A stretch of DNA of 64,000 nt. Origin: Hyaloperonospora brassicae. Lineage: Eukaryota > Oomycota > Peronosporomycetes > Peronosporales > Peronosporaceae. This document shows, piece after piece, positions 19,001-41,510 of this stretch (positions are counted from its first letter, which is position 1; the number at the start of each line of letters is the position of its first letter). The stretch is from contig CANTFL010001234.1 in assembly GCA_947650285.1 (NCBI GenBank), positions 62,001 to 126,000 of the forward strand, in the 5' to 3' direction. Below the pieces are notes generated by a model. That model saw nothing but the letters and a program-made list of their open reading frames with translations, was not told the origin of the DNA and did not search any database. The position numbers were made by a program, and so were the translations under genes.

Positions 19001-19480
19001 TTGTTCTCCGGACTAGATATTTGATTTTGAAGGGGAAGATCCTTAACTCGCTACCCTTTCTCATTAAAGGGGTATTTAATGATGTCCGCGATTAGGTAGC
19101 ATGCATTCTTGAACGTGATGCAGCATAGGAACGATTACGAGCGCAACAGCGAACGTGGCCTTCCATACGGTAACATCATCCTGATCATCAAGGACTCATA
19201 TGTGGGTGTGGTCGGTACACCAGTTTTTTTTGTGTAAGAACGAGGTCATTTCATGGTCAACCAGATTACATCTGCGCAGTTTTCACACAAAACAAGGACG
19301 AAGCTGCGGTAGCCGGTGCTGTAGCCGTCAGAACGAGGGCAGGAAGTCTGATCCTGTTCTAAGCTGACACCGACGGCTTCGAAAAAAGCCAACGTATGCC
19401 ATAGAAAGGATTGACGCCTACTCTTCAAATGGTCGTCTTTTCCGTCGACACCATCTTATCCGATAGCTTTGCATGTACTA
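16015..19480. other. No recognisable gene
   Basis: AT-rich to 17 kb, mixed composition afterwards. Short frames (up to 111 codons) show no family signature. Near 17074-17135 a phrase TAGACGAAGAAAGA is repeated imperfectly about 33 bp apart. The more GC-balanced 17.4-19.0 kb stretch may be decayed coding or repeat DNA that I cannot identify. Confidence 0.5.
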
Positions 19481-19489
19481 ATTTTCCGA

Positions 19490-19504
19490 CCACTCCAACA
19501 TTCG
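19490..19504 (+). promoter_or_regulatory. Candidate oomycete initiator upstream of the effector gene
   Basis: CCACTCCAACATTCG lies about 37-51 bp before the ATG and resembles the oomycete initiator (YCAYTYYNCAWTTT), with one extra base and an imperfect 3' part. Spacing is plausible for the short leaders of oomycete genes. Weak match. Confidence 0.3.
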
Positions 19505-19540
19505 CTCACTCGCCCCCAACCAAACCGACATCCACCAAGC

Positions 19541-20785
19541 ATGCGTCTCTATGCTTTCGCACTCGCGGCTTCCACTCCGATCCTGGCACACAACACGACC
19601 TTCACAAGAGCACCAGTCTCCACGATGAGGGATGTTAATCTTGCGGCCGGTCCACGTCGCTCTGACGGTATCCACAACGATGTCCATCTTGATCAGTCAC
19701 TGGAGGTGCGTAAATACACGAATGGTGAAGACAGGACGCGACTTCCTTCATCACCCGAAATGAGGGTGAAATCGGCAGCATCTTATCTGATGGCTAGACT
19801 GCACGAGAACTATCCGCGCTTGAGCAAGCTCCCCAAATACATACTGGAAGATTTACATGAAACGGATGGAAATGTCATCGACCACATCACCAAGTTGTAT
19901 CCTGACTTCACCACCAAAACGAAAGTTGACTTGGTGCACGCGCGTGCCTTCCTAAATCGTCGGAAGAATATGGTAACGACACTTGAAGATGCGGAAAACA
20001 CGATACAATTTATCCGAAAGACCATTCAATCTCGTCAGCAGAAGAGGGCCCAGGAAATGGAGGAGGAGCAAGCAGAGTGGTTGCGAGCCGGATCTCATCC
20101 TAACAAAGTCTTCAAAACGTTGTCCATTGCTCAGGGAACGTATGGAAGAGCATTGATAAACCCTCTGGCATCTCCAGACCTTGAGGTGTTGAGGCAGTAC
20201 ATTGAGAGGTACAACAAGCTGTTCATTGACGCACAACGTAAGGAAATCACGTTAGTGGGAACTTTGTACGAAGGCTTTGGACGTGATCTCGCGCGCTACT
20301 TGTTTGCTGCAAGTCACAGTCCTATCTTTGGGCCTGATGCGATGAAGATGCATCAAACCCTTTTGGAGGAGTGGTATCGAGATGGTATGACAATCGACGC
20401 GGCTGCTGATAAACTGGGGATTGCAACTACGACCGTCAAAGGCACCTGGATCAAATATCTGTACACCTTTATCGAGTACAGCGCACTGCTCCACACAAAG
20501 GGTCGTGTGAAAGAGGGTACTACCTTCTCGTATCTGAAGACAAGGATTGGCGACTACTTCTTCTCATTGCTGATAGCAGATGCAAGAAATCTTGGTAACA
20601 CTTACTTAGTGGATTGGGAGAAAGAACTGTTCAAGATTTGGAAGAAAGAGGGCGTGACGCCCAACGATCTGTACAGAAAGGTAATTTTACGAACAAAGTA
20701 TTATAAAAGTGATCCAGACAGAATGCTGGAGGAAGTCATCCGCAATCGATTCGCTACATGGTGGAACAAGAACGAGTTTAATTAA
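19541..20785 (+). CDS. Secreted WY-repeat effector-like protein without canonical RXLR
   Basis: 414 aa, intronless. The ATG at 19541 is chosen over 19469 because it starts a short signal-peptide-like segment (MRLYAFALAASTPILAHN, cleavage near residue 16-18). The N-terminal 25-70 region lacks RxLR; RRSD (39-42) and GEDR (62-65, EER-like) sit where RXLR-dEER would be. At least three W...Y units follow: EEEQAEWLRAGSHPNKVFKT (W180) with RQYIERYNKLF (Y220/Y224); LEEWYRDGMTIDAAADKLGI (W278) with WIKYLYTFIEY (Y307/Y313); IWKKEGVTPNDLYRK (W367, Y378). Such tandem WY/LWY helical bundles are typical of oomycete host-translocated effectors that act inside plant cells. It is isolated between transposons, as is common for effectors. 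The specific host target is unknown. Confidence 0.85.
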   Translation: MRLYAFALAASTPILAHNTTFTRAPVSTMRDVNLAAGPRRSDGIHNDVHLDQSLEVRKYTNGEDRTRLPSSPEMRVKSAASYLMARLHENYPRLSKLPKYILEDLHETDGNVIDHITKLYPDFTTKTKVDLVHARAFLNRRKNMVTTLEDAENTIQFIRKTIQSRQQKRAQEMEEEQAEWLRAGSHPNKVFKTLSIAQGTYGRALINPLASPDLEVLRQYIERYNKLFIDAQRKEITLVGTLYEGFGRDLARYLFAASHSPIFGPDAMKMHQTLLEEWYRDGMTIDAAADKLGIATTTVKGTWIKYLYTFIEYSALLHTKGRVKEGTTFSYLKTRIGDYFFSLLIADARNLGNTYLVDWEKELFKIWKKEGVTPNDLYRKVILRTKYYKSDPDRMLEEVIRNRFATWWNKNEFN

Positions 20786-25545: not shown

Positions 25546-25893
25546 ATGAATGAGACGCGACTAGCGATCCAGCCGTACCGCAGCGTGAGCTCCCACGGCG
25601 AGAAGCAACGAGAAGCAGCATGTGACCTGAGCGTTGCTCTGCTCATTGTCACACCCGCCATTTCTCTCGTTGTGGTTCTGTACGAGTTCATACATCTACT
25701 AAAGTACACTTCCTGCACGACCGAAAGAGACCGTCTTTTTGCTGAGCTGAGCGGCATTTGCGCACGGACGACAACGCAGCAGCTGCGACTTCTCTGTCTC
25801 AGTCAATTAAAGCTACTAGGTCCAGTTGCATTAAACGGCGCACGATCGTCCTGGTTGCCAACTATAGCGACTCGACCAGGTGATCAGGTGTAA
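25546..25893 (+). CDS. Truncated ORF with a predicted membrane segment, cut by B2 LTR
   Basis: 115 codons from ATG at 25546. About 50% G+C, clearly higher than the surroundings. Residues about 28-50 (SVALLIVTPAISLVVVLYEF) look like a transmembrane helix, followed by Arg/Glu-rich text. The stop codon is made by the first bases of the B2 LTR (GTGTAA at 25888-25893), so the original reading frame was cut there and is not resumed. An overlapping minus-strand frame (25383-25757) includes the repeat peptide and may be the relevant one instead. No family recognised. Confidence 0.3.
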   Translation: MNETRLAIQPYRSVSSHGEKQREAACDLSVALLIVTPAISLVVVLYEFIHLLKYTSCTTERDRLFAELSGICARTTTQQLRLLCLSQLKLLGPVALNGARSSWLPTIATRPGDQV

Positions 25894-26380
25894 CGGGGTA
25901 CACCACGTGTATGATTTACACAACATGCATTTGTTACATAACATGTGTGATTTACACAAGGGATGGAGTCCAATTAAAGATGGTATTAGAACACCATATC
26001 GATTGTCGGAGGCTGACGCGTGTCAGCCCATGAATTCGGAGATCCTTTTAGAGATATTAATTAGAACATTAGTGTTTAGATCAAGTAAGTATATCAAGGT
26101 GTTCTTTTAGATTAAAAGAAATAAAGTTCAGCTCCCATTTTGATCACTGAAGACACGTGCCTCACGAGGCGTCTTTGATCGTTAAGAGTCTAGCAAATAC
26201 TGTGAAGGTAGCTACTCTTGATCACTAAGTGCTGTGATTTTTTTGAATCGTTGGTCCCCCAAAAGAGGGACCGTAAGATCCTCGAGCTTGTTGACTCTCT
26301 GAGTCGGGTTCTGTGAACCAAAGTTGCTCGTTGCGCGCTAAGTCTTCGTCTGACTTAACAAGCTGTGTAGCTCCGCTACA
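25889..26380 (+). repeat. 5' LTR of B2
   Basis: 492 bp, TGTAACGGGG to GCTCCGCTACA. It differs from the 3' LTR by about seven positions (1.4%), one being a T-run indel. It shares the start, end and scattered blocks with the B1 LTR but is otherwise strongly diverged from it. Confidence 0.9.
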
Positions 26381-26499
26381 CATGGAAGCTCCCAAAGTCA
26401 ATATACACCAGTGTTTATATAGACTGATCCTTTGTGAGGATAAAGCAATTTACATCCCTAACTAAGGCATAAAAAGTAGTCCTTGATAGTCTGACCGCT

Positions 26500-26793
26500 G
26501 CCGTGGGACTAGAATATATGGAGTTGTCGATGCGCAAGGTCTTAAAGCGCTCAATGCACGTGTCGAGGCTTTCATGTAATATGAAGTGGTCTTTCTTGGG
26601 CAGTTTCAAAACCAAATGGCGTCGTCTACGCCGACACGCTTTACGGAAATGCCAGACGAAGAGGCTAAGTCTCGTTCCCTCAGAGTCGACGTCAAACACT
26701 ACTTCGGTAGAAGAGAGAAAAATAACCTGTGCATCTTTGATATTTGGATGATTATGAGGAATCGCCCAACTTTACTTGAGCACCTGCTAATCT
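26500..26793 (+). pseudogene. B2 gag, 5' part (before insertion of A)
   Basis: Phrases AAVGLEYMEL, LKALNARVEAFM and DEEAKSRSLRVDVKHYFG parallel B1 gag (AAVGPEYVEF, DVLNARVENFM, EEAKSRPLRVDVKHYSG) in the same order, at clearly lower identity than the rest of the element. Several stops and frame changes. The fragment ends at the LTR of A. Confidence 0.75.
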
Positions 26794-27186
26794 TGCAATG
26801 GACCACACCCTTGCGTGAACTTAACGAAAGGGTTTTGGTACGCCCGACAGAAGTACACGAGGCAAACGAGGAAGCGTAGATAAGGGAAAAGTAGAACTGT
26901 TATATTAATATAATTAAGTCTTTAACCACTATCTCTCTGTTTGACTTAACTTAATTATGTTAATCTAACCATGTGTATGGTGACGTCTCGTCACCACTCA
27001 TTGCGCGCGTCTTGCGGCGATTGTTAGGTTGATATCGTCAAGATATCAACCAATGAACAGACGCTTTGGTCGACCCATCAATATCACCACTATTGGTGAT
27101 ATTGTCAAAAGAATATTCAACATAATATTCGTTATTGTCATTATCTCTCCAATGACAATTTCCACGTAACGGGCTGCCCCGTTACA
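26794..27186 (-). repeat. 3' LTR of A, with six consecutive hairpins
   Basis: 393 bp. The right half (26979-27185) is a string of perfect stem-loops: GGTGACG (26979-26995), GGTTGATATC (27027-27051), AATATCACCA (27080-27103), GAATATT (27111-27130), TTGTCATT (27135-27158) and GTAACGGG (27166-27185). It is about 9% diverged from the other LTR. Confidence 0.88.
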
Positions 27187-27322
27187 TCACCCCCCCTTAA
27201 CCGATAGTCACCGTGTGACTATCAAAATATGCCGGCCACCCGTTGGACACCATTGGGACAGGGGGCACTTGTTGGGTCCGTTCCATTCACTTTCCGCTTG
27301 ACTTCGCATAGTTAACATATCT

Positions 27323-27700
27323 ATGCGAGGTGACTCAAGACACGCACAGCCCGCTGGTGTGCCAGCCTCTGCGGCAGACGATTCGTCGCCTGCAGCAACA
27401 GGTGCCGCAGGTGCACGCAGTACCACACCGCGTGCGCATGATGACCCCGACATTGAGGTCATCTACTCTGGCGAGTCAGACGTGTCTGACTCGGGCAATG
27501 TTCCAGAGACGTCTCGATCACCGGCGACGCCTCAGTATTCGCCAAGGCCACTGCCGAACGAACGGAATCGTGATTTGCATCACAGTCTGTTCGGCAGTGA
27601 TGATGAAGGTGATCAGAGTGGTGAGGAGTATTATTCCTTACCACCGCCGACTCGTGCTTCTTCGCACAAGCGTGATGACGATGGCGTGAGCCGTCGTTAA
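27323..27700 (+). CDS. Antisense ORF of element A, N-terminal part
   Basis: 125 codons, starting 137 bp after the 3' LTR and reading away from it, antisense to pol. It is in the same frame as the 27764-28909 ORF and separated only by TAA at 27698-27700 and about 20 open codons, so the two look like one gene of about 528 codons with a single nonsense change. Composition is low-complexity and acidic (DPDIEVIYSGESDVSDSGN, GSDDEGDQSGEEYYSLPPP), suggesting a disordered region. No family recognised. A TCCATTCACTTTCC stretch near 27283-27296 loosely resembles an oomycete initiator. Confidence 0.5.
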   Translation: MRGDSRHAQPAGVPASAADDSSPAATGAAGARSTTPRAHDDPDIEVIYSGESDVSDSGNVPETSRSPATPQYSPRPLPNERNRDLHHSLFGSDDEGDQSGEEYYSLPPPTRASSHKRDDDGVSRR

Positions 27701-27763
27701 TCTGGGAGCCGTGGTACCGACAGAGGTACCACTTCGAAGCGTGATGAGCTGAAGCCGTGGCGT

Positions 27764-28909
27764 TTGCCCGAACGGATCATCAATGGCTTGTCTCACGAGA
27801 CAAGCCAACACCATCGAATACCCTTATTCGATGCGACTGAGCTTCACGGCTTGAGTTCCAGCGCGAAGAACTTTCGCACTGAAGAAGATTTTTATCTCGA
27901 TGTCTTTCTTAGACATCGATGGTACAATGGCAACCAAAAGCGTGACAAAGCATCGCTTTTGGCTGCGTGGAATAGGTTCGTCCAAAACGTAAAGAATTTT
28001 GGACGAGAAGGGTGGCTCAAGAAACTTGAGACGACACGCCTCAGGTTCGAAAGGCGAACGCCAACCGATGCTAGGTACCGGTTGCACTGTTTGTCGAGTG
28101 AGGCAGACATTCTTTGCCTCGCATGGGGAGACCGTTGTGCGAGTTGTGTTGACAACTCGCAGCGTGAATATAGGGACGTGCATTCCCTAAGTTCGGCCTG
28201 GGGAAGGGCACACATCTTGGATGAGATGCGTGACACGATTGCAAACTTGCAATCCGTCTACAAGCGCCAAAAGCGCGTTTTTACCGATGGGCCCGAGGAC
28301 CTATCGGATGAGTCTCGTCATACTGTCGGGCGAGACCTTCAGCATCCATCAACAGCTGAGAGCGGGGCTCCCAGCTGTTCCAAGAGGGTGGATACCCCCG
28401 CCACTGGACGAGGTAGCTCGTCCTTGATCCTGAATCGTCGCGGTGATTCAAGATACGCTCCACTAGAAAGCTTTGACCACCGTGATCATCCACCAAAGGA
28501 TGTGGTGGAGGAGGAAAGACCTCCTCCAGATGATTCTGCTCACCATTTCGACCCTTACGAGATGGATCGCGCAATCGACGAATTGCGCGATGACTTGAAG
28601 CACGAGCGCGACCGGCGCTACGCTTGGACTGACACCGTGCGGAAGAACCGCAAGGATCGCGAGGATGATCGGGCGAGAGACCGCGCCGATTACGCCACAG
28701 CGCAGCTTCAGGTCGAGCGGGATGTCCGCTCCCATTACGGCGAGCTGGCGACAGCTCGCGGGGAGATATCTCGGTTGAGTTCCGAGGTATCATATCTGCG
28801 CGAACAGACGGATCTTCTGGAGCGCAAACGCAAGAACTTGAAGGATGTTCTTGAACGTGGGGGCTATCTTCATCGGAAGAAGAAGGCTCGTACCGACAGT
28901 ACGGTCTGA
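27764..28909 (+). CDS. Antisense ORF of element A, globular plus coiled-coil part
   Basis: 381 codons on the strand opposite to the retrotransposon genes. Residues about 20-140 are W/F/L-rich and look folded (FYLDVFLRHRWYNG, LLAAWNRFVQNVKNFGREGW, ILCLAWGDRCASC). Residues 150-260 are polar. Residues about 262-370 are strongly charged with heptad spacing (DELRDDLKHERDRRYAW; LSSEVSYLREQTDLLERK), a likely coiled coil, ending in basic LHRKKKARTDSTV. It overlaps the minus-strand chromodomain ORF over 28281-28909, with codon first positions facing each other. The matching antisense remnants in B1 and B2 support a real gene. Function unknown; a regulatory or structural accessory is only a guess. Confidence 0.6.
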   Translation: MPERIINGLSHETSQHHRIPLFDATELHGLSSSAKNFRTEEDFYLDVFLRHRWYNGNQKRDKASLLAAWNRFVQNVKNFGREGWLKKLETTRLRFERRTPTDARYRLHCLSSEADILCLAWGDRCASCVDNSQREYRDVHSLSSAWGRAHILDEMRDTIANLQSVYKRQKRVFTDGPEDLSDESRHTVGRDLQHPSTAESGAPSCSKRVDTPATGRGSSSLILNRRGDSRYAPLESFDHRDHPPKDVVEEERPPPDDSAHHFDPYEMDRAIDELRDDLKHERDRRYAWTDTVRKNRKDREDDRARDRADYATAQLQVERDVRSHYGELATARGEISRLSSEVSYLREQTDLLERKRKNLKDVLERGGYLHRKKKARTDSTV

Positions 28910-29513
28910 GTCTCCCCACGTAAAACGTAGGATGCGTGCGCATCCTACGTGGCAGTTCAATCGTGTATGCACTGCCCTTGCGATGCAACACTCGAAATGG
29001 CCCAATGTACTTCGGCAGTAGTTTACTACTGCCGACACTAGTGAATGCATGTCCAGGTAAGTTTAATGTAGACAGTAGTATTAGGTCGTTAGCTTTAAAT
29101 GAAAGAACATTTGCTCTTCCATTCTTATCTGCGTTCCGTTTCTGGCGGTCCACCGCGTTTGCGATGGAGTCCTGAACGAAACGGACTACCGCCTCTCGAG
29201 TCAGCAGGAAGTTCTCTGCTGACTCTTTGTTTTGTCTTTCAGTGCGCTTCGTGCGCACTGCTAAGAGATTATTCTCGTCTTCAGCGAGGTTGTCTTCTTC
29301 CTCGCTGGAATAATCGTTGACGATGCTGAATATACCAGCATCGTCATCATCATCCGAGTCAGTGATAGCGTCGCCGCTATTATTGAGGTGATCTTCTTCA
29401 TCGATGTCGACCTGATCGACATCGGCATCATACGTGACGACGTTAGCGTCGACACGTGATGAGCAAGAGCCAGAACGGTTTTTGCTCGAATGATTCCCTC
29501 CCCCCTTACCCAA
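28281..29513 (-). pseudogene. A pol C terminus: integrase C-terminal domain and chromodomain
   Basis: 410-codon frame containing an acidic segment (TDSDDDDDAGIFSIVNDYSS), the integrase C-terminal SH3-like/GPY part (SKLLPKYIGPFRVLHRKGSA, YTIELPRRMRTHPTFYVGRL), a Ser/Pro/Arg-rich linker, and near the C terminus a chromodomain (FLVERILNHRDD, SYLVQWRGYPPSWNSWEP). The chromodomain lies at about 28310-28475. The frame is joined to integrase only through a shift in a C-run (29500-29505). The last 629 bp are also coding on the opposite strand. Chromodomains of this type guide integration to marked chromatin. Confidence 0.85.
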
Positions 29514-30217
29514 GAGTCACACTCTAGAAGGGTGGGCACTCGTGGATGGTGTAGGCCATTCACGTAAAACGGTGTGTGCTGTGTGGAAGCATGCACCGAA
29601 TTATTGATGGCGAATTCCACCATTGGAAGGAATTCGCTCCAACTCGAAAACGAGTGGACATGTCCTGGAATGATCTCTTCGAGGACACGGTTCGCACGTT
29701 CCGTCTGACCATCTGTTTCCGGATGGTCAGAAGTGGACATCTTCAATCGTGTTCCAAGAGAACGGAACACGGTTTGCCAAAATGCCACCGTGAACCGAGG
29801 GTCAAGGTCGGATACGAGTTCACGGGGTAACCCGTGGAGTCTAAAGACCGTGTCGAGAAAGACACGACCACAACCTTGAGCCTTGATCGACTCGGGTACA
29901 GCAGCAAGATGGACCATCTTGCTGAATAGGTCAACAAACACAAGAATACCATTATTCGTGTGAGCGTCTTCGGGAAAACCGAAGACGAAGTCCATTGAAA
30001 CGGACTGCCAGAACTCTGTCGGAACAGACAGAGGCTGAAATGGCGCACGGGATGAAGGACTAGGCTTCAACCGTTGACAAACCTCGCAAGCACGTATGTA
30101 CTTGCGTACAAACTGATACTGGCGGGACCAGTAAAAGTCACGACTTACTGTGAGGTAAGTCTTTTCTCTACCACGATGGCCGCCTGTTGGGGAATCGTGA
30201 CACTCATACATGATGCG
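29500..30217 (-). pseudogene. A pol: integrase zinc finger and core
   Basis: Begins right after an in-frame TAA (30218-30220). The HHCC finger reads YECHDSPTGGHRGREK ... CEVCQRLKPSP. The core has all three catalytic residues in context: Asp in SMDFVFGFPED, Asp in LVSDLDPRF, Glu in DGQTERANRVLEE. The frame is lost in the C-run at 29500-29505. Unlike B1 and B2, the catalytic triad is kept. Confidence 0.88.
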
Positions 30218-30931
30218 TTAACGCAAATCACGATGAGCGGGTACGACGACACGAAGCGTGTCGTCGGCAACAGCTGTATAGGACAGCAATCCGTTGCGTG
30301 CCATATACCAATCCGATGAGGATCGGTACACAGCCGGTATATCCCTCATTGATTTACTGGATGGATTCACCAGATGATCCATCAATCGCAGAAGATCCTT
30401 ATCTTCCGCGTATGCCTTTCGTACGTCGTCAAGTAAACTTGACGACGGGACACTGACTGACAGTGTCGCAACAGTGGGCTTATCCTCACTGTTGGGTTGT
30501 GCGTCCGGCTCGAAATCGGGCCGGCGCGAAAGCGCATCAGCGACGACATTTAGTCGTCCTGGTTTATACTCCACGGAGAAGTTATACTCCGCGAAGAAAG
30601 ACAGCCACCTCGCCATTCTTTGCGAGAGGTGTGGGCTGTTTACGGCCGTGCGTAATGACGCATGGTCCTTGTAGACGACAAACGGTCTATCTCCCAAGAG
30701 ATAGACGCGAAACTTAGCCAGTGCGTACTTCATGGCAAGGAGTTCCTTGTCATGCACTGGGTAATTACGCTCAGCTGCTTGCAGCTGACGCGACTGATAA
30801 CAGATGACGCGCTCCGCGCCATCTGCATCGAACTGCATTAACGCACAGCCGATTGCAAAATCGCTGGCGTCACAGACCACATGAAATGGTCTGTCCTGAT
30901 CTGCAACCGCCAAGATCGGCGATTGCGTCAA
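30218..30931 (-). pseudogene. A pol: RNase H
   Basis: Frame starts TQSPILAVADQDRPF and carries the Ty3-type RNase H landmarks HVVCDASDFAIGCALMQ (first catalytic Asp), HDKELLAMKYALAKFRVYLL (Glu), FVVYKDHASLRTAVNSPHLS and PGRLNVVADALSRRPDF (last Asp). It is out of frame with RT because of a 1-base deletion near 30942. It stops at TAA 30218-30220. Confidence 0.88.
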
Positions 30932-31773
30932 GCTTTGCTTGATACCTCAAAGGAACGCTGGCACTCAGCGTTCCATTTACACTTGACATTTTTCTTGAGC
31001 AAGCAAGAAAGATCTACCGTCATCTCGGCGTAGTTGCGCGAGTACTTGTGCAAGTACGCCGCTAGACCAAGGAACTTTCTTAGTCCCTTGACATCGACTG
31101 GCACTGGCCAGTCGGTGATCACCTTGATCTTTGCGGGATCAGGGCGTACGCCGTGTTTACCCACGATGTACCCAAGAAGTGGTATTTTGCTAGCCGCGAA
31201 TATACACTTCTTGAGGTTGGCGTACAACTTATACTTGCGCATAAGTTGAAGAACCTGTCGAACGTGAGTTCTATGAACTTCAACGTCCGTCTTTCCGTCC
31301 ATAGCCCGGCTATGGACGAACACATCGTCGAAGTAACTCGGTGCGAAGTCTCGCACCGGTCTCAACAGATTTGTGACACATCTGCTGAATGTTGAAGGGG
31401 CATTGCTCAGCCCTTGTGGAATAACTAGCCACTCCCACAGCATCCCTCTGGGGGTACTCACTGCTATGTACGGGATGTCTCGTTCACGCATGAGTATCTG
31501 ATATAATCCATCCATCAGATCCATGGACGAAAAGATGGTACTCTTTGACATACCATCTATGATTACGTCCTTCCTCGGTATAGGCGTCTGAGCCGGTACC
31601 GTTGCAGCATTCATTTTGAAGAATGCGTGCACTATCCGCCATCCTTTTGTGGCCTTTCGCACACAGAAGGTCGGAGAGCTGTGAGGGGATGTTGATTCCC
31701 TCACATGGCCCGCTCCAACGCGATCGGCCCAGAACTTGTCGATCGCTAGTACTTGTTCACGAGGCAGTGGACA
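30928..31773 (-). pseudogene. A pol: reverse transcriptase
   Basis: RT fingers/palm text PHSSPTFCVRKATKGWRIVH, STIFSSMDLMDGLYQILM, TPRGMLWEWLVIPQGLSNAP and the catalytic box SYFDDVFVHS (near 31335), then LGYIVGKHGVRPDPAKIKVI and FLGLAAYLHKYSRNYAEM. Upstream the frame is the same as the linker ORF but separated by TAG at 31774-31776. Downstream it runs into a stop after a 1-base deletion near 30942. Length and motif order are normal for Ty3/gypsy RT. Confidence 0.9.
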
Positions 31774-32259
31774 CTACTTCATGACACAGTACTTTGAGCC
31801 CGGTATGATCTCGATCTCGTTTCGACTGCCTTTGTCCTTAGGCAACTCGCAAGGTACGGATTCAGGGAACACATCCCTGAATTCGATCAAATCCTTATAC
31901 AAATGATTTGCCTGAAGTGACTCCCAGGATTGAGACGTGTATCGCTCAATCCGAGTCTTCTCATCGACGACACTTTCGTCCATCGATGAGCTGCTGAGAA
32001 CCCGTTCGTTCTCAGCAAATACTGTGGCCGACCGAATTTCGGCCACATACTCATCCTCTGTGACGAGTATGCAGACCTGCTTGACTTTGCCACTACGCAG
32101 ATCACGCAAGAACCATTTCGGTTCTAGCGTTGCCAACTGATTTATCTCCGAAGTTGACTTCGGAGGCACAATCAGATCAAGCGTATAAGCGCCTACGCTT
32201 GATCCGTCATTAACCAAGACGTTCAACGTCTCAGTTTCTTCCTGGGAACTTGCTTCCAC
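31774..32259 (-). pseudogene. A pol: protease-RT linker
   Basis: 161 codons in the same frame as both the protease ORF (TGA at 32278-32280 between them) and RT (TAG at 31774-31776). Contains NVLVNDGSSVGAYTLDLIVP, EPKWFLRDLRSGKVKQVCIL and, at the end, ELPKDKGSRNEIEIIPGSKY, the usual entry to RT in these elements. Two nonsense codons thus split an otherwise continuous pol. Confidence 0.8.
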
Positions 32260-32277
32260 AGGTTGCTGAGGGCCTGA

Positions 32278-33195
32278 TCACTCAGCAAGCGACTCTTGAG
32301 GAATTCCTTCCTCAAGTACGTGGGGACTTATTCCCTCGACGTTTTCCGACTGTGGCTGTGCAACCACAGTCAGGGACCGATCCTCTACGGTCGACTCTCC
32401 AGTCGACCTAGGATTTCCATGTTGCCCCTTGGAGGCAACAGGTTTCTTACTTCTAAGATGCTGCCCGCGAGGCATGCATCCATGTCCCGGTTCACTCGAC
32501 TTATTCGAGTGGTGGATCTTCGGCGCAGCCTGTACCTCTGTACAGCCGCCGGGAGCTTGCTCCACAGTGTAGTGATAAGCTACACTGTGATCTTGTGCAG
32601 TCGTGATAACGACCGTACCGCAAGTGAGGCCATCGCACTCTCTCGCAGAACATCCACACGCTTGTGGACGCTCCAAGATGTTCATCAGATGGCCATCTGA
32701 TGAACAAGCGGCAGGCATCTTCACGGATCGATGCTGCCAGCTCACCCTTGGCTCGTACTTTCTGAGCCAAGGTAATCCCAGGATGACATTAAATTTGTCA
32801 TCCAGATCCAGTACGATGAAGTCATCATCGTACTGTTTGCCCTCTAACGTGTAGTGGATTCCTACTACACGTTTCTCAACGGTTATCGATGCACCTGTTG
32901 CAAGGCGCACCGTCATCCTCGTGAAGGGAATGTCGCGCTCAACGAACTTGAGCCTACGACCCTCTAGTGACTGTCGACGAACAAAGTTGTTCGACGCCCC
33001 ACAGTCTACTAGGACACGAAGCGACAATCCATTTGTCGCTTCCAACTTCAAGGTGATGAGCGAAACGTCATCACCAGGTGCAGAGACACACACTGATTGT
33101 GTATCTGGAGCAACTTTTGTCAAGAGATTTGCAAATTCTCTTGAGGTTGCTGGATCAGTAGGGCGCTCCGCCCCTACTGACCCCGACCATTTTTT
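32278..33195 (-). pseudogene. A pol: aspartic protease, entered by -1 frameshift
   Basis: The frame is open from the slippery site at 33189-33195 (first residues IKKWSGSVGAERPTDPATS) to TGA at 32278. The protease motif is VLVDCGASNNF near 33006; the usual Asp-Thr/Ser-Gly is Asp-Cys-Gly here. The second hydrophobic motif FNVILGLPWLRKYEPRVSW follows. There is no need for an internal ATG: the open frame begins with a TTG-containing stretch, consistent with a gag-pol fusion. The C-terminal part is low complexity. Confidence 0.85.
33156..33195 (-). promoter_or_regulatory. A gag-pol programmed -1 frameshift signal
   Basis: On the minus strand, gag codons TCA AAA AAT contain the heptamer A AAA AAT (33189-33195). 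Nine nucleotides follow (33180-33188), then a hairpin (33156-33179; CAGTAGGGGCG / CGCCCTACTG, one bulge, loop about 3 nt). Gag ends at TAG inside the hairpin; protease is exactly -1. Heptamer, spacer and stem all fit the known -1 frameshift pattern. Confidence 0.75.
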
Positions 33196-34346
33196 GATGG
33201 TCCGTCTCGCTGTTGCGGCTTCGTAACAGCGCTGGACCCACGCCCATTGCCCTTTCTGGCAAATGGTAGTCCATTTCGCTCAGTACTGTTTGGTACTGGG
33301 CGTGGAGCGCTACACTCGTATGCGTAGTGCCCTAACTTCTGATAGCGATTGCACTTCTGCAATCGCTTGTTGTTTGAAGAGCGAGGTCTCTCGCTCTCAA
33401 CATAGCAGAGTTCCATTGGTTCTGGACCTCCGATCTCTTGTCGTCTCGGTGGCCGATAAGAGTTCGAGCTAGCATGAGCCTGTCTCATGCTAAAGTCTTC
33501 CTGTTCCGCGGCTGACATCGCCTCTTCCAGCGCATTCAGCTCAAGGCGGAACAGGTGGCTCATGACGGGCCCTTCTGCGAGCCCTTGCATGAATACCGTA
33601 ATCAACGTGTGTTCATGTACTGGGTTAGCAGTTATACTACTCGCGAGGAGTCGTATATGGTGAGCGTAAGCGTGCACATCACGCTTACCCTGCTTGAGTT
33701 TCAGGAGCTCTGAACGAGCTCTGAACGAGCCCTAAACTCATCCCGTGGAGGCTCAAACGTTTGTCTGATCCGGGACTTGAAGTCATCTAGCGACCTAAAC
33801 ACATGTGGGTCGCTACTCTCGAGCCCCAGGGACCAAGTTTTGGCACGTCCTGCCAAGTGGGTTTGAGCAAATGTGAGTTTCATTTGCTCATCTTCGACGC
33901 GACGAGCCCTTAAGGCTCTGTCGAGTTCGACAAACCACAGTAACAGGGAGTCCTCCGGGGCTCCACTGTACTTGGAGATGTCAACTTTCATGACCTCGGG
34001 ACGACGCGCATGCGCCGTCACGCCCACAGCAGCATGGAATTGCTGCTGTCCTAACCGCTCACAGCTCTGTCTGTTGAGCACCGAGTTCTCTCAACTGCTC
34101 GGCCTGTTGAGAGCCTTGCTGGTGAAGCAAGGCTACCTTTTCCCTTTTGGCGACAAGTTCATTTTGAATGAACCTGGCTATAGAGGCATGTTGTTGGTCT
34201 CTGTCTAGAGACTCCAACATGGCGCTAATGGCGAACTCGCCTACGGTAGAACTCATTCGTTCTACCGCACCCCATTCGATGTCACTCAAATGGGTTAACC
34301 CTTTACGCGTGGCGTGAAAGGTCTCTTCATCATCCAACACGTTCAT
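33174..34346 (-). pseudogene. A gag
   Basis: Three frames in series: 34346-34059 (DIEWGAVERMSSTVGEFAIS, Gln-rich coiled part), 34081-33701 (capsid: KVDISKYSGAPEDSLLLWFV, LTFAQTHLAGRAKTWSLGLE) and 33677-33174 (LITVFMQGLAEGPVMSHLFR, then nucleocapsid). An exact 11-bp tandem duplication (GAGCTCTGAAC, 33705-33715 and 33716-33726) explains the second frame break. The zinc knuckle reads CNRYQKLGHYAYEC, so the second Cys of C-x2-C-x4-H-x4-C is Tyr. The start ATG is about 50 bp from the 5' LTR. Stop TAG lies inside the frameshift hairpin. Confidence 0.85.
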
Positions 34347-34396
34347 GTTGGATGTTGTGGAGGTGGTCCTTGGAAGGACTACAAAGTGCTAGCAGG

Positions 34397-34788
34397 TGTA
34401 ACGGGGCACACCCTTGCGTGAACTTAACGCAAGGGTTTTGGTGCGCCCGACAGAAGTACACGAAGCAAACGAGGAAGCGTAGATAAGGGAAAAGTAGAAC
34501 TGTTATATTAATATAATTAAATCTTTAACCACTGTCTCTCTGTTTGACTTAACTTAATTATACTAATATAACTGAGTGTATGAAGACGTCTCGTCACCCC
34601 TCATTGCGCGCGTCTCGCGGCGATTGGTGGGTTGATATCGTCAAGATATCAACCAATGAACAGATGCATTGGTCGACCCATCAATATCACTACTTTGGTA
34701 ATATTGTTAAAAGAATATTCAACATACGAATCTTTGTTTTCATTATCTCTCCAATGACAATTTCCATGTAACGGGCCGCCCCTTTACA
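34397..34788 (-). repeat. 5' LTR of A
   Basis: 392 bp, minus strand; edges TGTAAAGGGG... and ...CCCCGTTACA read on that strand. About 36 differences from the 3' LTR. The same six hairpins are present, partly degraded (for example AATATCACTA / TTGGTAATATT has mismatches). Confidence 0.88.
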
Positions 34789-35470
34789 AATATCGCTTGC
34801 CATCATTAAGCCCGATGGGAAAGCTAGAGAGTAGACTCTGACGTTTGACACGTCTGTCGAGATGGCTTTATTCACATAGGATTCGCCAAAGTTAGACCTT
34901 CCGCGTGTTCTCTCGCCGCCTAATCAGGCTTACCCCGTGCGCTCACGCTTCTTGTTTACCCGTCAAGGTAAGAATGAGCTGACGAACTATGTCCAAGAGT
35001 TGAGAACTCTCATGGCTGCTATGCAGGTCGACCCTCTCCCTGAGACAGTCTGTGTGACTGTCTTCATGGAAGGTCTTCGTAATGGCGTTGCCAGAACCGA
35101 GGTGTTTCGGGTCCATCCCATTACTTTTGAAGTGGCTGTGAGCATAGATCAGAATGATGAGCAAAACTTCAAGTCGACCAGACTTGGTTGGAATGGGTAC
35201 AACCCAAGCTTTGCGAGGGCAGCCTCTGTGAGCACCTCGGCTTACTGTAGGCCAGAAACGATGGATTTCAGCCAAAATTAGGATGAAGTTGAAGCGGAGC
35301 TTCATGTTGCAGAGCAACGACAGGAAGTGAGACGCTGTTATATGTGCGTAAGCACTAAGAACTTTCGTCTTACTTGTACTTTGCGTAAAAAACAACCGAC
35401 TCCTATGGAGCGAAACCCCAGCCACAATCAGAAACCTGGTATGGCGCGTGGAAACCACAACACCCAGTAG
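34789..35470 (+). pseudogene. B2 gag, 3' part (after insertion of A)
   Basis: Resumes B2 gag: RRVFSPPNQAYPVRS-like text, then TRQGKNELTNYVQELRTLMA (open 34937-35281), TAG after DFSQN, and a knuckle CYMC....N....C with His replaced by Asn, as in B1. From about 34928 it is virtually identical to B1; before that clearly diverged. Gag ends at TAG 35468-35470 within the frameshift hairpin. Confidence 0.8.
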
Positions 35471-35488
35471 GTGCGGGGCGCCCTACTG
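35449..35488 (+). promoter_or_regulatory. B2 gag-pol -1 frameshift signal
   Basis: TGGAAAC (35449-35455), 9-nt spacer (35456-35464), hairpin CAGTAGGTGCG ... CGCCCTACTG (35465-35488) with the gag stop in its 5' arm. Same layout as B1 and A. Confidence 0.6.
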
Positions 35489-35526
35489 AGGTAGAACTGA
35501 TATCTGTTGCTTCTCTACGAGGTAGA

Positions 35527-36453
35527 GTGAAACAGGGCTTAGCCCCAGAGAGCTCTGTGCCCGCCAGCACAAGGCGTGGATACAAGCCTGGCTTGTTAAT
35601 CGCCGGTGCGAAAGTTAAAGGCTTTGAGAAGCATTGGTCGATCCTAATTGACTCCGGAGCATCATGCAATTATGCTCGACGTCTTTCCTTTGAGGGAAGT
35701 CAGCGATACGCTGAAGCGCTCAAAGCGCATGAGGGTGATTCAATCACCGTTCGTTTAGCGACTGGTAGTCGCTTCACGGTGCCTAAAGTTCCGTTGAACT
35801 TAGGTGTGAAGTTTTTGGACTTTGACAGCATTGAACGCTGCCTTGTCCTCGATTTGGATTCGAAATATTATCTCATCCTAGGTATGGCTTGGCTTGAACG
35901 CCATGAGCCATGGATTGATTGGAGGTCTAAGACCTTAGGCTCCACGCGCAATGTTCCTAGCGAAGCTTTGGAGAGTCATGAACCCACCTTTGCTAGGCAA
36001 CAAAAGCGCTATTGGCGGGAGCCATTGACGGAAGATGTCAATGTGCTGGACATTGGTATGTCAGAGTCAATTAACTCCAATGTCAATGACACTAATATTG
36101 AGCGGAGCTCTTTCACCGTATGTGAAGGGAGCTATGCTCCGTTGAGTGATACTCGTTCTAATACTGAGTCACTGCATGCTGCAGGCATGGTTGGCCTAGG
36201 GCCGAGACATCAAGAATGTAATTCCTCTGATGTGAGTGGGGTGGCACGTGAAATTCCACCTAGTGAGGGCGGACGATATGGCACCTCAGTGAATGTCGGT
36301 ATTGACATTGTTGGCAAGGAGCTTGAGTGTTCAGGACTAGGCCCGGATGATGTACGTGAGGTGGTACGTGTAAATCAACCGGGTGAAGTGGTTGAGTTAC
36401 GTAACTTCACTAGATGTCGCTCAGGACATGAGCTCTCGTATAGAGAGTGCTAA
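35527..36453 (+). pseudogene. B2 pol: aspartic protease region
   Basis: 308 codons, protein identical to B1 10481-11407, with the active site LIDSGASCNY and ILGMAWLERHEPW. It is in the -1 frame to gag and open back to the slippery site. The frame closes at TAA 36451-36453 (after LSYREC), before the linker region at 36664. Confidence 0.85.
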
Positions 36454-36663
36454 GATAAATACCAACCACGGGGACCCTACGGTCCCGGCCTCTATGAGGT
36501 GTAAGGTTTATTTGAGAAAGCAATCCCAGCATCGGGTGGCAACACTTAAGCGCCCAACGTCTAGAACGTCACGAATTGACAAAATAATAATACACTATAT
36601 ATACTTGTCAATGGGTTGACTGGATAGGTTGATGGCAACAATAGTCTTGAGACTCTTCCATCC

Positions 36664-37575
36664 TTGGATACTCTATTTGACCTAGACGAAATGTCTGACG
36701 GCGAATCTAGCCAAGCATTGCAGGAAGGAGAATTATACGAGTTAGTGGTCATTCGGCCGGATACTGAGTTGAACTCATCCTCGTTATTGGACGAGTCTGT
36801 CCTTGAGAACACAAAGGTGGAATTGAATGCCCGTAGTGGATGTTCGATCATTAAGAATGCTCTTGATCCGTTTTATCCTTTGGTAAAGAAGTTTCACGAC
36901 ATGGTGTGTCACAGCCCACCGTCCGTCTTACCTCCCGATAAAAGTGTACGTCATGAAATCGACTTGGTTTCTGGAACTAAATACTGCGTAACACGGCAGT
37001 GGTCTTTACCGAAGGAAAAGTGTGACGTCATTTACGAATTCTTTCGTGCAAAACACGCGGCGAGAATGGTTCGTGAGAGCAAATCTCCTCATTCCACACC
37101 GGAATTTTGTGTCAGGAATTCCAATCGAAAGTGGCGCATTGTACAGGCTTACAATAAGTTTTTTATGCGGCCACCATTCCGGCTAAGACACCAATTCCGA
37201 TGAAGAATGTTCTTCAAAACAATATGGTGGGATGTACAATGTACAGTGCGCTCGACTTAGTCGATGGTTATTATCAGCTGCTCATGCGAGAGAGAGAGAG
37301 ACATTCTGCTGACAGCGGTCAGCACTCCAAGCGGTATGCTCTGGTAGTGGCTTGTTATGCCGCAAGGGTTATTTAATGACCCGTCTACGTTCAATCGTAT
37401 TGTGACACAATTGTTCAGACCTCACATAGGATATGCACAGACGTACTTTGATGACATCTTTGTCCACAGTCGTGCTATGAACGGTCGGTCGGATGTGTAC
37501 AATCACATTGACCATTTACGAGCGGTGCTCGAGTGCATGCGCACAAATAAGCTGTACACCAACGCGTCTAAGTGA
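36664..37575 (+). pseudogene. B2 pol: linker and reverse transcriptase
   Basis: 36664-37203 matches B1 except for a few bases (for example TRQW where B1 has TRQC). It ends at the same frameshift near 37165, followed by the same (GA)7 frameshift near 37287. It then has its own extra stop where B1 has Glu (GGAGTGG to GTAGTGG near 37346). The palm frame 37357-37575 holds MPQGLFNDPSTFNRIV and TYFDDIFVHS. Defective. Confidence 0.88.
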
Positions 37576-38045
37576 ATCTATGGTGCAGGATAGTTTTTAT
37601 TTTAGGGTGCTTTATTGGGGAGCGAGGCCTTCGAGCGAACCCCGCTTAGGTCAAATCCATTGTTGATTGGCCGGTTCCAAAGAACCAAAAGGACTCACGT
37701 AAGTGGCTTGACCTTGGCAATTACTTACACAAGTACAGTGCGAATTACGCAGACATGGATCGGTCATTATCTGGTCTCCTAAAAAAGGATGTGGAATGGT
37801 GTTAAACTAGCACAGAGCGTGATGCTTTCCAAGCAGTAAAGGAGAGTCTCTCTAATGCGCCAATCTTGGCTTTGCCTGATAATGATCGATCTTTCAGTGT
37901 CGTCTGTTACGCATCTGACATTGCCATAGGCAGCGCTCTGTTACAGACAGATTCTGATGGACGGAAACGCGTCATTGCGTTTGATTCCCGGTAGCTGATG
38001 GCTGCAAAAAAGAACTATCCTGTTCATGACAAATAGCTACTTGCA

Positions 38046-39816
38046 ATGAAGTATGCTCTCGTCAAATTTAGAGTTTATCTTCTTGGCTCTAAGCCTTTTG
38101 TAATCTATACAGATAAGGCGTCACAAATCACTGCGACCCAGTCGCCTCACCTCTCTCATAGAATGGCTCGTTGGCTTTCCTTCTTTGCCGAGTACAACTT
38201 CGAGGTGAAGTACAAGCCGCGCAAGCAGAATGCTTTGGCTGATGCGTTGTCACGCAGGCCTGATTATGAGCTTGCTCATGTTACCACTCGGTCGTCGTCT
38301 GTCATTAATTTCATCCGTATGGCTTACGACAAGGATGAACATCGTGTAGCTCTGCTACGTGCTCTATGGAGCGAGGAGTTCAAGGACTCGGACATAGAAT
38401 TGTCGTCACGATTACGTGCGAGGTTACATCTATATTCCATCGATCAGGGCCTGTTGTGCTATAGCACGGATGTGGAGGATACCCCTCGCATCGTTGTACC
38501 TCATGATGAGGAGTTGAAGTATCGGATCCTCTATGAGGCACATGATACTGCGTTGAGTGGTCATCTCGGTCGTGAGAAGACCCATGGCTCTGTGAGCCAA
38601 TACTATTGGTGGCCCAAACTATACAAATGGGTGAGCACATATGTGCGTACGTCTGAAACGTGTCAATAGGCGAAACCCTCACCTCACGCGGCCGCGCCGT
38701 TGGCTAGTTTGCCTATACCCGATGGGGCGTTGGGAGTTTATCAGCATGAATTTCATTTTCGGTCTACCGAAAGATTCGTTTAGCAATACGGTTATTGTGG
38801 TCTTTGTTGACCGTTTGAGCAAGATGGCTCATTTAACGGCGGTGCCGGATACGATTGATGTTGGAGGTACAGCTACGCTGTTTATTGATCGAGTGTTTCG
38901 ACAACACGGTTTGCCTTTGTCACTTGTCTCTGATGGAGATCCTCGCTTCACTGGGAAGTTTTAAAAAACCATCTTCAAAGTGCTCGGCACACGATTGGAC
39001 ATGTCCACAGCGGATCATCCGCAGACCTATGGTCAAACCGAGCGAGTGAATCGCATCATTGGTGACATCTTGCGTAGTGTTTGCGCTGAAACGCCTAATC
39101 GTTGGAGTTCGATGCTCCCTGTCGTTGAATTTGCGTTGAATAACTCCGTGCATGCCTTTACCGGCTACACACCGTTCTATGTGAAAGGTCTCACACCTCC
39201 TCGCGTTCCGTTAATGCTACCACTACGTGGTTCAGGGCTTGGTGGGAGAGAAGTTTCCGATCGTCTTGATGATATAATCCCGTCAACTGTTCAAAAACAG
39301 GTAAGCGAGTTTCTCGTAACGCGATTGAATATCTTACGACATTTGCGTGACGCACTGGCTGATAGCCAAAACAATCAGACGGAACAAGCTGATGATAAAG
39401 GCAGAGGTTGTATTGAACGTTATGAGGTCGAAGACCCAATTCTACTTAATGCTAAAAACTTACCTACAAATGTATTGTCTGCTGTCGTGACGAAGTTGCG
39501 TCCGCGCTTCATTGGACCATTCAGGATCGTCGCGAAGAAGGGACTTGCGTACACGCTCAACCTTCCGCGAAAATGGAGCACACACTCCGTGTTCTGCTTT
39601 GGCTTGGTTTAACTGTATCGGGATCCGTCCCACGTGAACTTGGGGGCGCTTGCGCCGCATAGGTTGGCCTTGCCATCGGTTGCTGAATCCGTATCAGGAG
39701 GTCAAGCTGAGCCTCCATCCGGGCTTGGCCCAACTCCAACGCTTGGACACGGGCTCGCATGGCGTCAAACGCACTCTGGGTCTTATCCAATGTCTCACGA
39801 AGACCACCTAGTTTGA
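38046..39816 (+). pseudogene. B2 pol: RNase H end, integrase and tail
   Basis: 38046-38669 carries the RNase H C-terminal part and integrase finger; 38641-38964 and 38980-39612 carry the integrase core and C-terminal domain, with the same MNF substitution at the first catalytic Asp as B1 and the same TAA at the end of 39612. The in-frame tail runs to 39816. Differences from B1 are few (for example GLPLSLVSDG for GLPLALVSDG; YEVEDPIL for YEVGDPVL). Confidence 0.85.
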
Positions 39817-40980
39817 GTAGCACCTTCTCATGTTTTTCCCTCGGTACAACGATCACCACGGACGCTGTATGACGTCCAAGGGAACCACTAGTTTCGTGCC
39901 GAGAGACCAATGAAACGACATCATCGTCATGGACAATACCAGTATCTGGTGAAAATCTTTGACGCGATCATTCGAAGTTGGAGAATGAATGGGACTACTC
40001 CTTCGGCAGAATTACCCAAATGCCTTGGATGTTTTTAAACATCGTGTCCAGAGTCACCTTGCGACCGAGGTCGCTTCTCACCAATAGTGTTGGGAGGTAG
40101 CAGGTTGCTCTGTACCCCCGATTCGACACTCGCGGCTACCGGCGTAGCCGAAGCATAGCGTGTGCAATTACGCAACTGGCCGCTAACCTTGGCCTTGGCG
40201 CATTCGTACCAAACCTTTCGCTCCAGACAAACGTCGATCACATCCGCACGTGCTCTAAGAGCTGTCGTACTGATGAGGTGTCCCTTGCGATACACCCAGC
40301 GAATGAATTTTTGGTCCTCCTCTTCATATAACTCACGGACAAACAACAATATGGGGAATCCCTTGATCTGTCAAACCGAAAATACGACGAATCAGTCTTT
40401 TAAAGGTGTGTCTTGTACTGACCTTGTGTGGTCAAGAAGTGTTCTAAATACTTCTCGTGCAGAATCTGGCGAAAGGCGAAATCTTCAGGCGACGTAGCCT
40501 CTGGATTTATGGCCCATGTTATAAAATTAACAGCTTTGATGTTGGATTGAGACCTTCCTCCACGTCCGGTGTTGATGACACATAGCCGCGCCGGTATTGG
40601 ATGACCCTCTTGGTCTGACTGGGACGAAGATCTCTCTCCTCTCTTTGGAAAATTAAATATTAATGCTCGTCGAGCGGGTTGGTGATGGTGCGTTCACCAG
40701 CATCTGCTGAATGATGTCGCACCAGGAGCGCGGTGGTTTCACCACGTCCGATGAACGGATTGGATGCTGTAAGAGGTCGTTACTCAGCAACAGGTAAGTA
40801 GGACAACGTCTATTCATCTCCATGGACATTGGTGTCGATTCTATCGTACACATCCTTATCGAAGTCAAGGTAATAGGAAAGATTCCGAGACTCGTGCGGT
40901 GGCGATGGCATGAGGGTTGGTCTTTGGTAAATCGAATGATTGTAGACCACAGACCGCCCTCTACGAAGAAAGAGATCGAT
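39557..40980 (-). pseudogene. Antisense gene remnant inside B2
   Basis: Minus-strand frames 39557-39910 (117 codons, coiled-coil-like, identical in protein to the B1 copy) and 40035-40349 (VRELYEEEDQKFIRWVYRKG..., parallel to B1 6525-6899). Further upstream, traces such as TNPLDEH near 40675 parallel the B1 N-terminal frame. The part left of 40042 is in the near-identical block; the part beyond is much more diverged from B1. Function unknown. Confidence 0.5.
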
Positions 40981-41017
40981 TGACCTTTTGTGGTAATATC
41001 AGTCTGGTGGGGGAGGT

Positions 41018-41510
41018 TGTTATGGGGTACACCACGTGTATGATTTACACAACATGCATTTGTTACATAACATGTGTGATTTACACAAGGGATGGAGTCC
41101 AATTAAAGATGGTATTAGAACACCATATCGATTGTCGGAGGCTGACGCGTGTCAGCCCATGAATTCGGAGATCCTTTTAGAGATATTAATTAGAACATTA
41201 GTGTTTAGATCAAGTAAGTATATCAAGGTGTTCTTTTAGATTAAAAGAAATAAAGTTCAGCTCCCATTTTGATCACTGAAGACACGTGCCTCACGAGACG
41301 TCTTTGATCGTTAAGAGTCTAGCAAATACTGTGAAGGTAGCTACTCTTGATCACTAAGTGCTGTGATTTTTTTTGAATCGTTGGTCCCCCAAAAGAGGGA
41401 CCGTAAGATCCTCGAGCTTGTTGACTCTCTGAGTCGGGATCTGTGAACCAAAGTTGCTCGTTGCGCGCTAAGTCTTCGTCTGACTTAACAAGCTGTGTAG
41501 CCCCGATACA
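41018..41510 (+). repeat. 3' LTR of B2
   Basis: 493 bp; starts TGTTATGGGG, ends CCCCGATACA; about seven differences from the 5' LTR. Preceded by the purine tract at 41006-41017. Confidence 0.9.

What the first reader, a model, noticed from the sequence alone, without database searches (positions are those of the whole stretch)
26794..34788. Element A is a near-continuous chain of short perfect inverted repeats
Perfect stems of at least 9 bp with loops of 0-8 nt: 27785-27806 (10 bp), 27897-27919 (9), 28139-28160 (9), 28566-28591 (10), 28925-28950 (12), 29198-29225 (10), 29319-29345 (10), 29902-29924 (11), 30244-30266 (10), 30424-30447 (10), 30685-30706 (9), 31860-31882 (9), 31993-32016 (9), 32023-32047 (9), 32146-32165 (9), 32175-32204 (11), 32563-32589 (10), 32679-32706 (14), 32810-32834 (10), 32846-32873 (10), 33018-33042 (10), 33345-33366 (9). 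Many 6-8 bp stems fill the gaps. With equal base frequencies about 0.3 such stems (arm 9 or more, loop 0-10) are expected in 7.2 kb (7200 x 11 x 4^-9). They cross gag, protease, RT, integrase, chromodomain and the antisense ORF, so no single protein explains them. In B1/B2 I noticed stems only up to about 7 bp. Possible causes are template switching by RT that perfects imperfect palindromes, or selection for a globally folded genomic RNA (packaging, nuclease or RNAi resistance).
Basis: partly seen in the sequence, partly recalled or inferred. Interest (0 to 1): 0.92.

Follow-up and report, generated by a model that had tools for sequence, protein, structure and literature searches.

The report
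Retrotransposon built from selected perfect hairpins
A jumping gene of a downy-mildew-like microbe is written, end to end and on both strands, as a chain of about a hundred short perfect hairpins that natural selection keeps intact in its active copies, perhaps to hide its RNA from gene silencing.

Summary
All 22 stems are exact; element A has 49 perfect stems of arm 9+ (loop up to 10) against 0.39 in shuffles. They belong to the family: the eight youngest complete copies have 102-106 stems of arm 8+, A and its two nearest kin 72-75. A young pol frame has 53 stems against 1.2 in synonymous-codon shuffles. Folding energy is about 50% below shuffles on both strands. Between young sublineages arms diverge 3-5 times less than unpaired DNA (p about 1e-8), whereas private mutations of older copies hit arms and other DNA alike (ratio 0.96). 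Two-sided changes exceed slid controls, 16 against 3-9. So folding is selected; template switching predicts about 36 two-sided changes between two young copies and 3 were seen. Mismatches show no G-U preference (21 G-U, 28 A-C), so sense-RNA folding alone fits poorly. Related families show the trait in graded strength, mostly at other positions. Inferred, not shown: hairpins on both strands hinder sense-antisense pairing and silencing. Nearest known kind: genome-scale ordered RNA structure of RNA viruses.

The parts
26794..34788 (-). Element A: decayed chromodomain Ty3/gypsy LTR retrotransposon (fam1), gag-pol on the minus strand, carrying 74 perfect stems of arm 8+
26794..27186 (-). 3' LTR of A (in the sense of gag-pol)
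   Evidence: repeat pair with 34397-34788; 91.6% identical over 383 nt
34397..34788 (-). 5' LTR of A
33177..34346 (-). gag remnant, in three frame pieces
   Evidence: tblastn with the gag of L028; weak Ty3_capsid and Retrotrans_gag matches below cut-off
29264..33123 (-). pol remnant (protease, RT, RNase H, integrase), in frame pieces
   Evidence: RVP_2, RVT_1, RT_RNaseH, Integrase_H2C2 over cut-off, rve just below cut-off; tblastn 92% to L028 pol
28281..29513 (-). pol C-terminal frame with SH3_Tf2-1 and chromodomain
   Evidence: PF24626, PF00385 over cut-off
27317..28906 (+). antisense gene, damaged in A (ORF 27764-28909; 87% over 536 aa to the 535-aa ORF of L028)
   Evidence: homologs; under constraint between young copies
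27079..27104 (.). perfect hairpin, arm 11, loop 4 (in the LTR)
27784..27807 (.). perfect hairpin, arm 11, loop 2
28925..28950 (.). perfect hairpin, arm 12, loop 2
29012..29035 (.). perfect hairpin, arm 11, loop 2
29318..29346 (.). perfect hairpin, arm 11, loop 7
29902..29924 (.). perfect hairpin, arm 11, loop 1
30424..30447 (.). perfect hairpin, arm 11, loop 2
31296..31318 (.). perfect hairpin, arm 11, loop 1
32175..32204 (.). perfect hairpin, arm 11, loop 8
32679..32706 (.). perfect palindrome, arm 14, loop 0, the longest in A
32809..32835. perfect hairpin, arm 11, loop 5 (these eleven of arm 11+ are the longest of the 74 listed)

Best explanation
A belongs to a chromodomain gypsy lineage of a peronosporalean oomycete whose whole nucleic acid, LTRs and both coding strands included, has evolved into a chain of short perfect local hairpins (span mostly 20-28 nt, arms mostly 8-11, loops most often 4-5). 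Natural selection for local folding keeps them in transposing copies; dead copies lose them. Shown: excess over shuffles, fewer stems in older copies, constraint on arms in active lineages, excess two-sided changes, avoidance of the least wobble-rich codon register, graded presence in related families. Supported, not proven: what is selected is Watson-Crick pairing that works equally on both strands. Inferred: the element also encodes a constrained antisense protein, so both strands are probably transcribed; self-folding of sense and antisense RNA into hairpins too short for Dicer (general knowledge) slows their annealing and hides siRNA targets, so the element partly escapes RNA silencing. 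My odds: selection for folding 0.85, two-strand action 0.65, silencing escape as the reason 0.35. The single figure below is for selection on folding acting on both strands, whatever the reason.
For: Stem excess. Stem number falls with LTR divergence over 17 complete copies. MFED about 50% on both strands of L028, 33 of 33 windows with z under -2 on each (48-49% at 350 nt). Young-young divergence: L028/L009 arms 24/2105, loops 24/633, outside 179/5228; L028/L019 arms 11/2103, outside 118/5229 (p 9e-9 and 2e-8); third codon positions alone p 0.0001-0.004. Private mutations of six older copies: arms 101/2182, outside 252/5209. Two-sided Watson-Crick types at 16 of 1190 pairs against 3-9 in ten slid controls. 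Codon registers 25/23/5, p=0.001. Arm length against GC rho -0.27, p=0.004, n=113. Strand symmetry: active-lineage mismatches 21 G-U, 28 A-C, 27 other, G-U share interval 0.29-0.58. Antisense protein constrained: codon-position differences 18/20/37 of about 324 each between young copies, p=0.003, against 24/23/25 for dead A. In Phytophthora infestans small RNAs map along Gypsy elements in both orientations and 21-nt ones depend on Dicer (PMC3522703, passages).
Against: No expression, small-RNA or probing data. fam0 and B1/B2 have antisense ORFs but few long perfect stems, so an antisense gene alone does not bring them. Compensatory changes between fam2 and fam3 are no commoner than in control pairs (20/374 against 31/542). 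At third positions alone the older-copy control was not flat (14/470 in arms, 61/1303 outside). Some young comparisons lean to A-C over G-U (L028 to L009: 10 against 2), unexplained. Spacing is random, so there is no sign of tiling against siRNAs.
Confidence: 0.6

Rival explanations
1. Selection acts on the sense genomic RNA only (compaction, packaging, stability, or shielding as in structured RNA viruses).
For: Everything that shows selection on folding; hairpin positions mostly not shared between families, as described for GORS (PMC7642675, passages).
Against: G-U is tolerated no better than A-C (21 against 28; 25 against 21 inside stems of L028). Folding excess and G-U share of predicted pairs are equal on both strands (50.5 and 48.8% MFED; 5.7 and 5.5% G-U).
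Confidence: 0.2
2. Selection acts on DNA: hairpins in single-stranded cDNA during reverse transcription, or cruciforms in the integrated copy.
For: Strand-symmetric Watson-Crick pairing; LTRs are included.
Against: No known step gains from about a hundred hairpins in cDNA, and structure usually hinders RT (general knowledge). For cruciforms in chromatin, integrated copies should be kept too, but they decay.
Confidence: 0.12
3. Reverse-transcriptase template switching at quasi-palindromes rewrites one arm as the complement of the other; the hairpins are a by-product without function.
For: Stems are perfect and Watson-Crick, and mismatches inside stems are mostly transitions, as if once-perfect stems decayed (46 of 61 in L028). 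The trait is tied to the transposing element. Four of 161 hairpins have a centred inversion variant.
Against: Symmetric copying predicts about 36 two-sided changes between L028 and L009; 3 were seen, with 17 one-sided. Avoidance of one codon register points to protein-compatible change, though purifying selection could also filter copied arms. Arms top out at 14 bp in the copies examined for it.
Confidence: 0.08
4. Chance or base composition.
For: None found.
Against: Dinucleotide shuffles, synonymous-codon shuffles, five unrelated RT families of the same genome with 0-1 stems per 1.5 kb.
Confidence: 0.005

Closest known systems
[quoted passage not shown]
   Same: Many consecutive local stem-loops through coding sequence, energy far below shuffles, positions poorly conserved between relatives, less diversity at paired sites (PMC7642675, abstract and passages).
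   Different: Here it is an LTR retrotransposon; MFED is about 49% at 350 nt against 15% for SARS-CoV-2 and at most 23.4% for the vertebrate RNA viruses quoted there (another shuffling method); stems are perfect; no G-U preference and equal folding of both strands.
Gypsy elements with antisense ORFs between pol and 3' LTR (plant Retand, Grande, RIRE2)
   Same: An antisense ORF between pol and the 3' LTR in most or all members (PMC11963269, passages); here in all four families examined.
   Different: Those are plant elements, and the paper calls Retand non-chromovirus; the antisense proteins scanned here (fam1-fam3) match no Pfam family over its cut-off. The words 'secondary structure' occur 0 times in that text.
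Foldback elements and MITEs
   Same: Inverted repeats in a transposable element (recalled, not tested).
   Different: Those have terminal inverted repeats; here hairpins fill the whole of an LTR element.

Membership tests
Chromodomain Ty3/gypsy LTR retrotransposon (chromovirus) | LTR pair | tested here: met
   26794-27186 / 34397-34788, 91.6%
Chromodomain Ty3/gypsy LTR retrotransposon (chromovirus) | PR-RT-RH-IN order | tested here: met
   Pfam matches in that order on the minus strand; rve itself just below its cut-off
Chromodomain Ty3/gypsy LTR retrotransposon (chromovirus) | chromodomain C-terminal to integrase | tested here: met
   PF00385 in 28281-29513, E 2.4e-13
Chromodomain Ty3/gypsy LTR retrotransposon (chromovirus) | RT phylogeny within chromoviruses | not tested
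   no tree against named reference clades was built
Genome-scale ordered RNA structure | genome-wide folding energy below sequence-order controls | tested here: met
Genome-scale ordered RNA structure | less variation at paired sites | tested here: met
Genome-scale ordered RNA structure | pairings poorly conserved between relatives | tested here: met
   fam1 against fam2, fam3, fam0 at chance level; fam2/fam3 share 9 of 26 against 1.7 by chance
Genome-scale ordered RNA structure | structure formed by the sense RNA of an RNA virus | tested here: inconclusive
   it is a retrotransposon; both strands fold alike and G-U is not preferred; no probing data
Template-switch palindromes | two-sided changes about as common as restored pairs | tested here: not met
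   3 two-sided, 17 one-sided, about 36 two-sided expected

The most novel reading that the evidence does not exclude
A retrotransposon lineage has turned its whole genome into a two-strand hairpin code: the genes on both strands are written so that sense and antisense RNA each fold into hairpins too short for Dicer, a cis-encoded armour against dsRNA formation and siRNA targeting that lets an element with a selected antisense gene keep both strands transcribed.
Probability: 0.3. Interest if true: 0.92.

Novelty: new variant of a known kind. Interest (0 to 1): 0.8.

Why it matters
It shows selection on nucleic-acid folding across a whole LTR retrotransposon, at a strength beyond the RNA viruses quoted in the paper seen, with related families in graded states in one genome. 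That makes an open question testable: does genome-wide structure serve replication, or hide RNA from the host? Strand-symmetric pairing without G-U preference is a new clue that the complementary strand matters too. Sense protein, antisense protein and hairpins are three layers of information laid on the same DNA.

Tried and rejected
Regular spacing: rejected, hairpin gaps are random (CV 1.04 against 0.99). Antisense gene as sole cause: weakened, because fam0 and B1/B2 have antisense ORFs but few long perfect stems; L035, without hairpins, shows no antisense ORF over 148 aa in itself or in 3 kb downstream, a sample of one whose LTRs were not located. Conserved positions as cis elements: rejected for fam1 against the others; partly true for fam2/fam3, where two-sided changes are no better than control. 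Loop inversions as template-switch footprints: 4 of 161 hairpins (the later part of that output was cut). Relatives in viral contigs: none. Rfam matches in L028, L054, L055: none at gathering score. Of 21 copies, four (L012, L017, L018, L020) were dropped as not spanning the element in one alignment. The 20 other RT loci were picked by me from the 150 places listed (3546 first-look candidates), so family frequencies are unknown. Ten literature searches (two of them returned nothing) listed no title or abstract beginning that reports such a retrotransposon; beyond listings I saw passages of three papers only.
Full report
Observation. All 22 stems are exact. A scan of 26794-34788 finds 74/49/27/11 non-overlapping perfect stems with arms of at least 8/9/10/11 and loops up to 10, against means of 1.21/0.39/0.12/0.04 in 100 dinucleotide shuffles. 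The rest of the 64-kb window has 9 stems of arm 9+.

What carries them. A is a decayed chromodomain Ty3/gypsy element with gag-pol on the minus strand in several frame pieces. The genome (100.6 Mb, 898 contigs) holds many copies: 40 places were scored, of 2103 first-look candidates. Protein relatives point to Peronosporales: Peronospora effusa 89% over residues 440-1000 of the pol frame of copy L028, with Phytophthora and Globisporangium below. L028 has an antisense ORF of 535 aa, damaged in A. It has 8 protein hits: the best full-length ones are unnamed ENA proteins (48% over 95-96%), the named ones Hyaloperonospora arabidopsidis (49% over 71%) and Peronospora matthiolae (36% over 72%).

Family property, lost with age. 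Of 20 fetched copies plus A, 17 were complete by my cut-off. The eight with LTR identity of 99.2% or more have 102-106 stems (arm 8+, loop up to 10); five with 95.3-98.4% have 98-105; L021 (90.6%) has 94; L013, L014 and A (91.2-91.6%) have 75, 72 and 74. So stems belong to the transposing element and decay after insertion.

Geometry. In L024, hairpins of arm 7+ and loop up to 12 cover 40% of the bases. In its internal region stems of arm 8+ occur mainly at loops 0-13, most often 4-5, and are near background from about 17 on apart from a few at 22-23; the span has its mode at 23 nt. At arm 6 a weaker excess (2-4 times) persists to loops of 40 in L028. Arm and loop are anticorrelated (rho -0.40, n=101 for arm 8+; rho -0.17, p=0.05, n=128 for arm 7+). 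Longer stems are AT-richer (rho -0.27, p=0.004, n=113), as expected if a stability threshold is selected. Gaps between hairpins are random.

Folding. MFED of L028 is 50.5% sense and 48.8% antisense at 240 nt (33 of 33 windows with z under -2 on each strand), 49.1/48.3% at 350 nt; A has 38%. A published yardstick gives 15% for SARS-CoV-2, 7.5-10.7% for HCV and 23.4% for the highest vertebrate RNA virus there (PMC7642675, passages), with another shuffling method.

Selection. With stems defined in one young copy and changes counted in another: L028 to L009 arms 24/2105, loops 24/633, outside 179/5228 (p=9e-9); L028 to L019 arms 11/2103, loops 18/633, outside 118/5229 (p=2e-8). Over the six ordered pairs of L028, L009 and L019 the outside/arm ratio is 3.0-5.4. 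Third codon positions alone: arms 0.6-2.3%, outside 3.9-5.8%, p=0.0001-0.004 in three comparisons. Control: private mutations of six older copies fall on arms 101/2182, loops 31/657, outside 252/5209, arm/outside 0.96; changes fixed in a young sublineage 18, 15 and 83, ratio 0.52; the two differ at p=0.03. At third positions alone the older-copy control was 14/470 in arms against 61/1303 outside, so it is not perfectly flat. A fast-changing 3' segment shows arms 3-5%, outside 12-13%, loops 19-29% between L028 and L009. Pairs with two Watson-Crick types: 16 of 1190 over 19 copies, against 3-9 in ten slid controls; two of the 16 are LTR pairs counted in both LTRs, and several rest on one copy. 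The pol frame has 53 stems of arm 8+ against 1.2 in synonymous shuffles, with codon registers 25/23/5 (p=0.001): the register with fewest wobble pairs is rare. Codons wholly in arms are less conserved in amino acid against the other families (0.51-0.57 against 0.65-0.67), so stems sit where the protein tolerates change; residues identical in the three other families are kept about equally (46/54 in arms, 186/208 outside).

Against template switching. If an RT copied one arm onto the other whenever a mismatch arose, half of the corrections would be two-sided. At outside divergence about 72 of 1051 pairs would be hit between L028 and L009, hence about 36 two-sided changes; 3 were seen, with 17 one-sided (the expectation is my arithmetic and assumes symmetric, complete correction).

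Which strand. Mismatches carried by at least two copies outside the A trio: 21 G-U, 28 A-C, 27 other (95% interval of the G-U share 0.29-0.58). Single-copy mismatches: 76, 61, 103. A sense-only RNA constraint should favour G-U (general knowledge). Predicted structures hold equal G-U shares on the two strands (5.7 and 5.5%). The part of the antisense frame outside the sense frame is constrained between young copies (codon-position differences 18/20/37, p=0.003) and not between L028 and dead A (24/23/25, p=0.80). I read this as a demand on both strands.

Relatives. Twenty other RT loci were sampled. Stems of arm 8+ (loop up to 13) per 1.5 kb of RT-RH: fam1 members 12-19, fam2 (L029) 8, fam3 (L042, L047) 5-6, fam0 (L030, L036, L050) 0, five unrelated RT families (L031, L032, L033, L035, L038) 0-1. 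fam0 to fam3 are about 58-63% identical in amino acid across families and fam2/fam3 77-79%. At arm 6 and loop 3-6 the enrichment over five shuffles is graded: 17, 11, 8 and 5.8 times for fam1, fam2, fam3, fam0; 2 and 0.9 times for L031 and L032. Hairpin positions are not shared between fam1 and the others and are partly shared between fam2 and fam3 (9 of 26 against 1.7 by chance), though without an excess of two-sided changes. All four families of the clade have an antisense ORF in the copies examined. fam0 is folded too (17% sense, 23% antisense), so the trait may be old in the clade and extreme in fam1.

Mechanism. Shown: selected, strand-symmetric hairpins. Inferred: protection from RNA silencing. 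In P. infestans most small RNAs come from LTR retrotransposons, they map along Gypsy elements in both orientations, and 21-nt ones depend on Dicer (PMC3522703, passages). That hairpins slow annealing, escape Dicer and hide targets is general knowledge, not tested here. Sense-RNA-only and DNA-level rivals stay open.

Noticed in passing
25886-41510, with A at 26794-34788: A lies inside gypsy element B2 (near the start of its gag), yet A's LTRs differ by 8.4% and B2's (25886-26380, 41014-41510) by 1.6%: by the LTR clock the guest is older than its host. A's flanking 5-mers AATCT/AATAT agree at 4 of 5.
   Followed up: partly
6671-12116 against 40263-34819: B1 (5389-13063, minus) and B2 share 5.45 kb at 97.9% while their LTRs and adjoining ends are only 67-75% alike (B1/B2 LTRs about 72%), which suggests a recent chimera or gene conversion.
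   Followed up: partly
L055:127-7941 (fam0): fam0 folds more on the antisense than on the sense strand (MFED 23 against 17% at 240 nt, 21 against 17% at 350 nt), unlike fam1.
   Followed up: no
12000-20000: Plus-strand folding excess (mean z -2.3 and -1.7 in two 4-kb bins) beyond the end of B1 at 13063; not identified.
   Followed up: no
1-4000: Three isolated perfect stems of arm 10+ within 4 kb, in a stretch with otherwise few stems.
   Followed up: no
L054:273-667 and L053:748-1292: fam1 LTR-like sequence (91-96%) lies just upstream of a fam2 and of a fam3 element.
   Followed up: no
5912-7323 (+) and 39611-40989 (-): B1 and B2 carry antisense-ORF sequence related to that of fam0 (39-77% in pieces), so the antisense gene is wider spread than the perfect hairpins.
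   Followed up: partly
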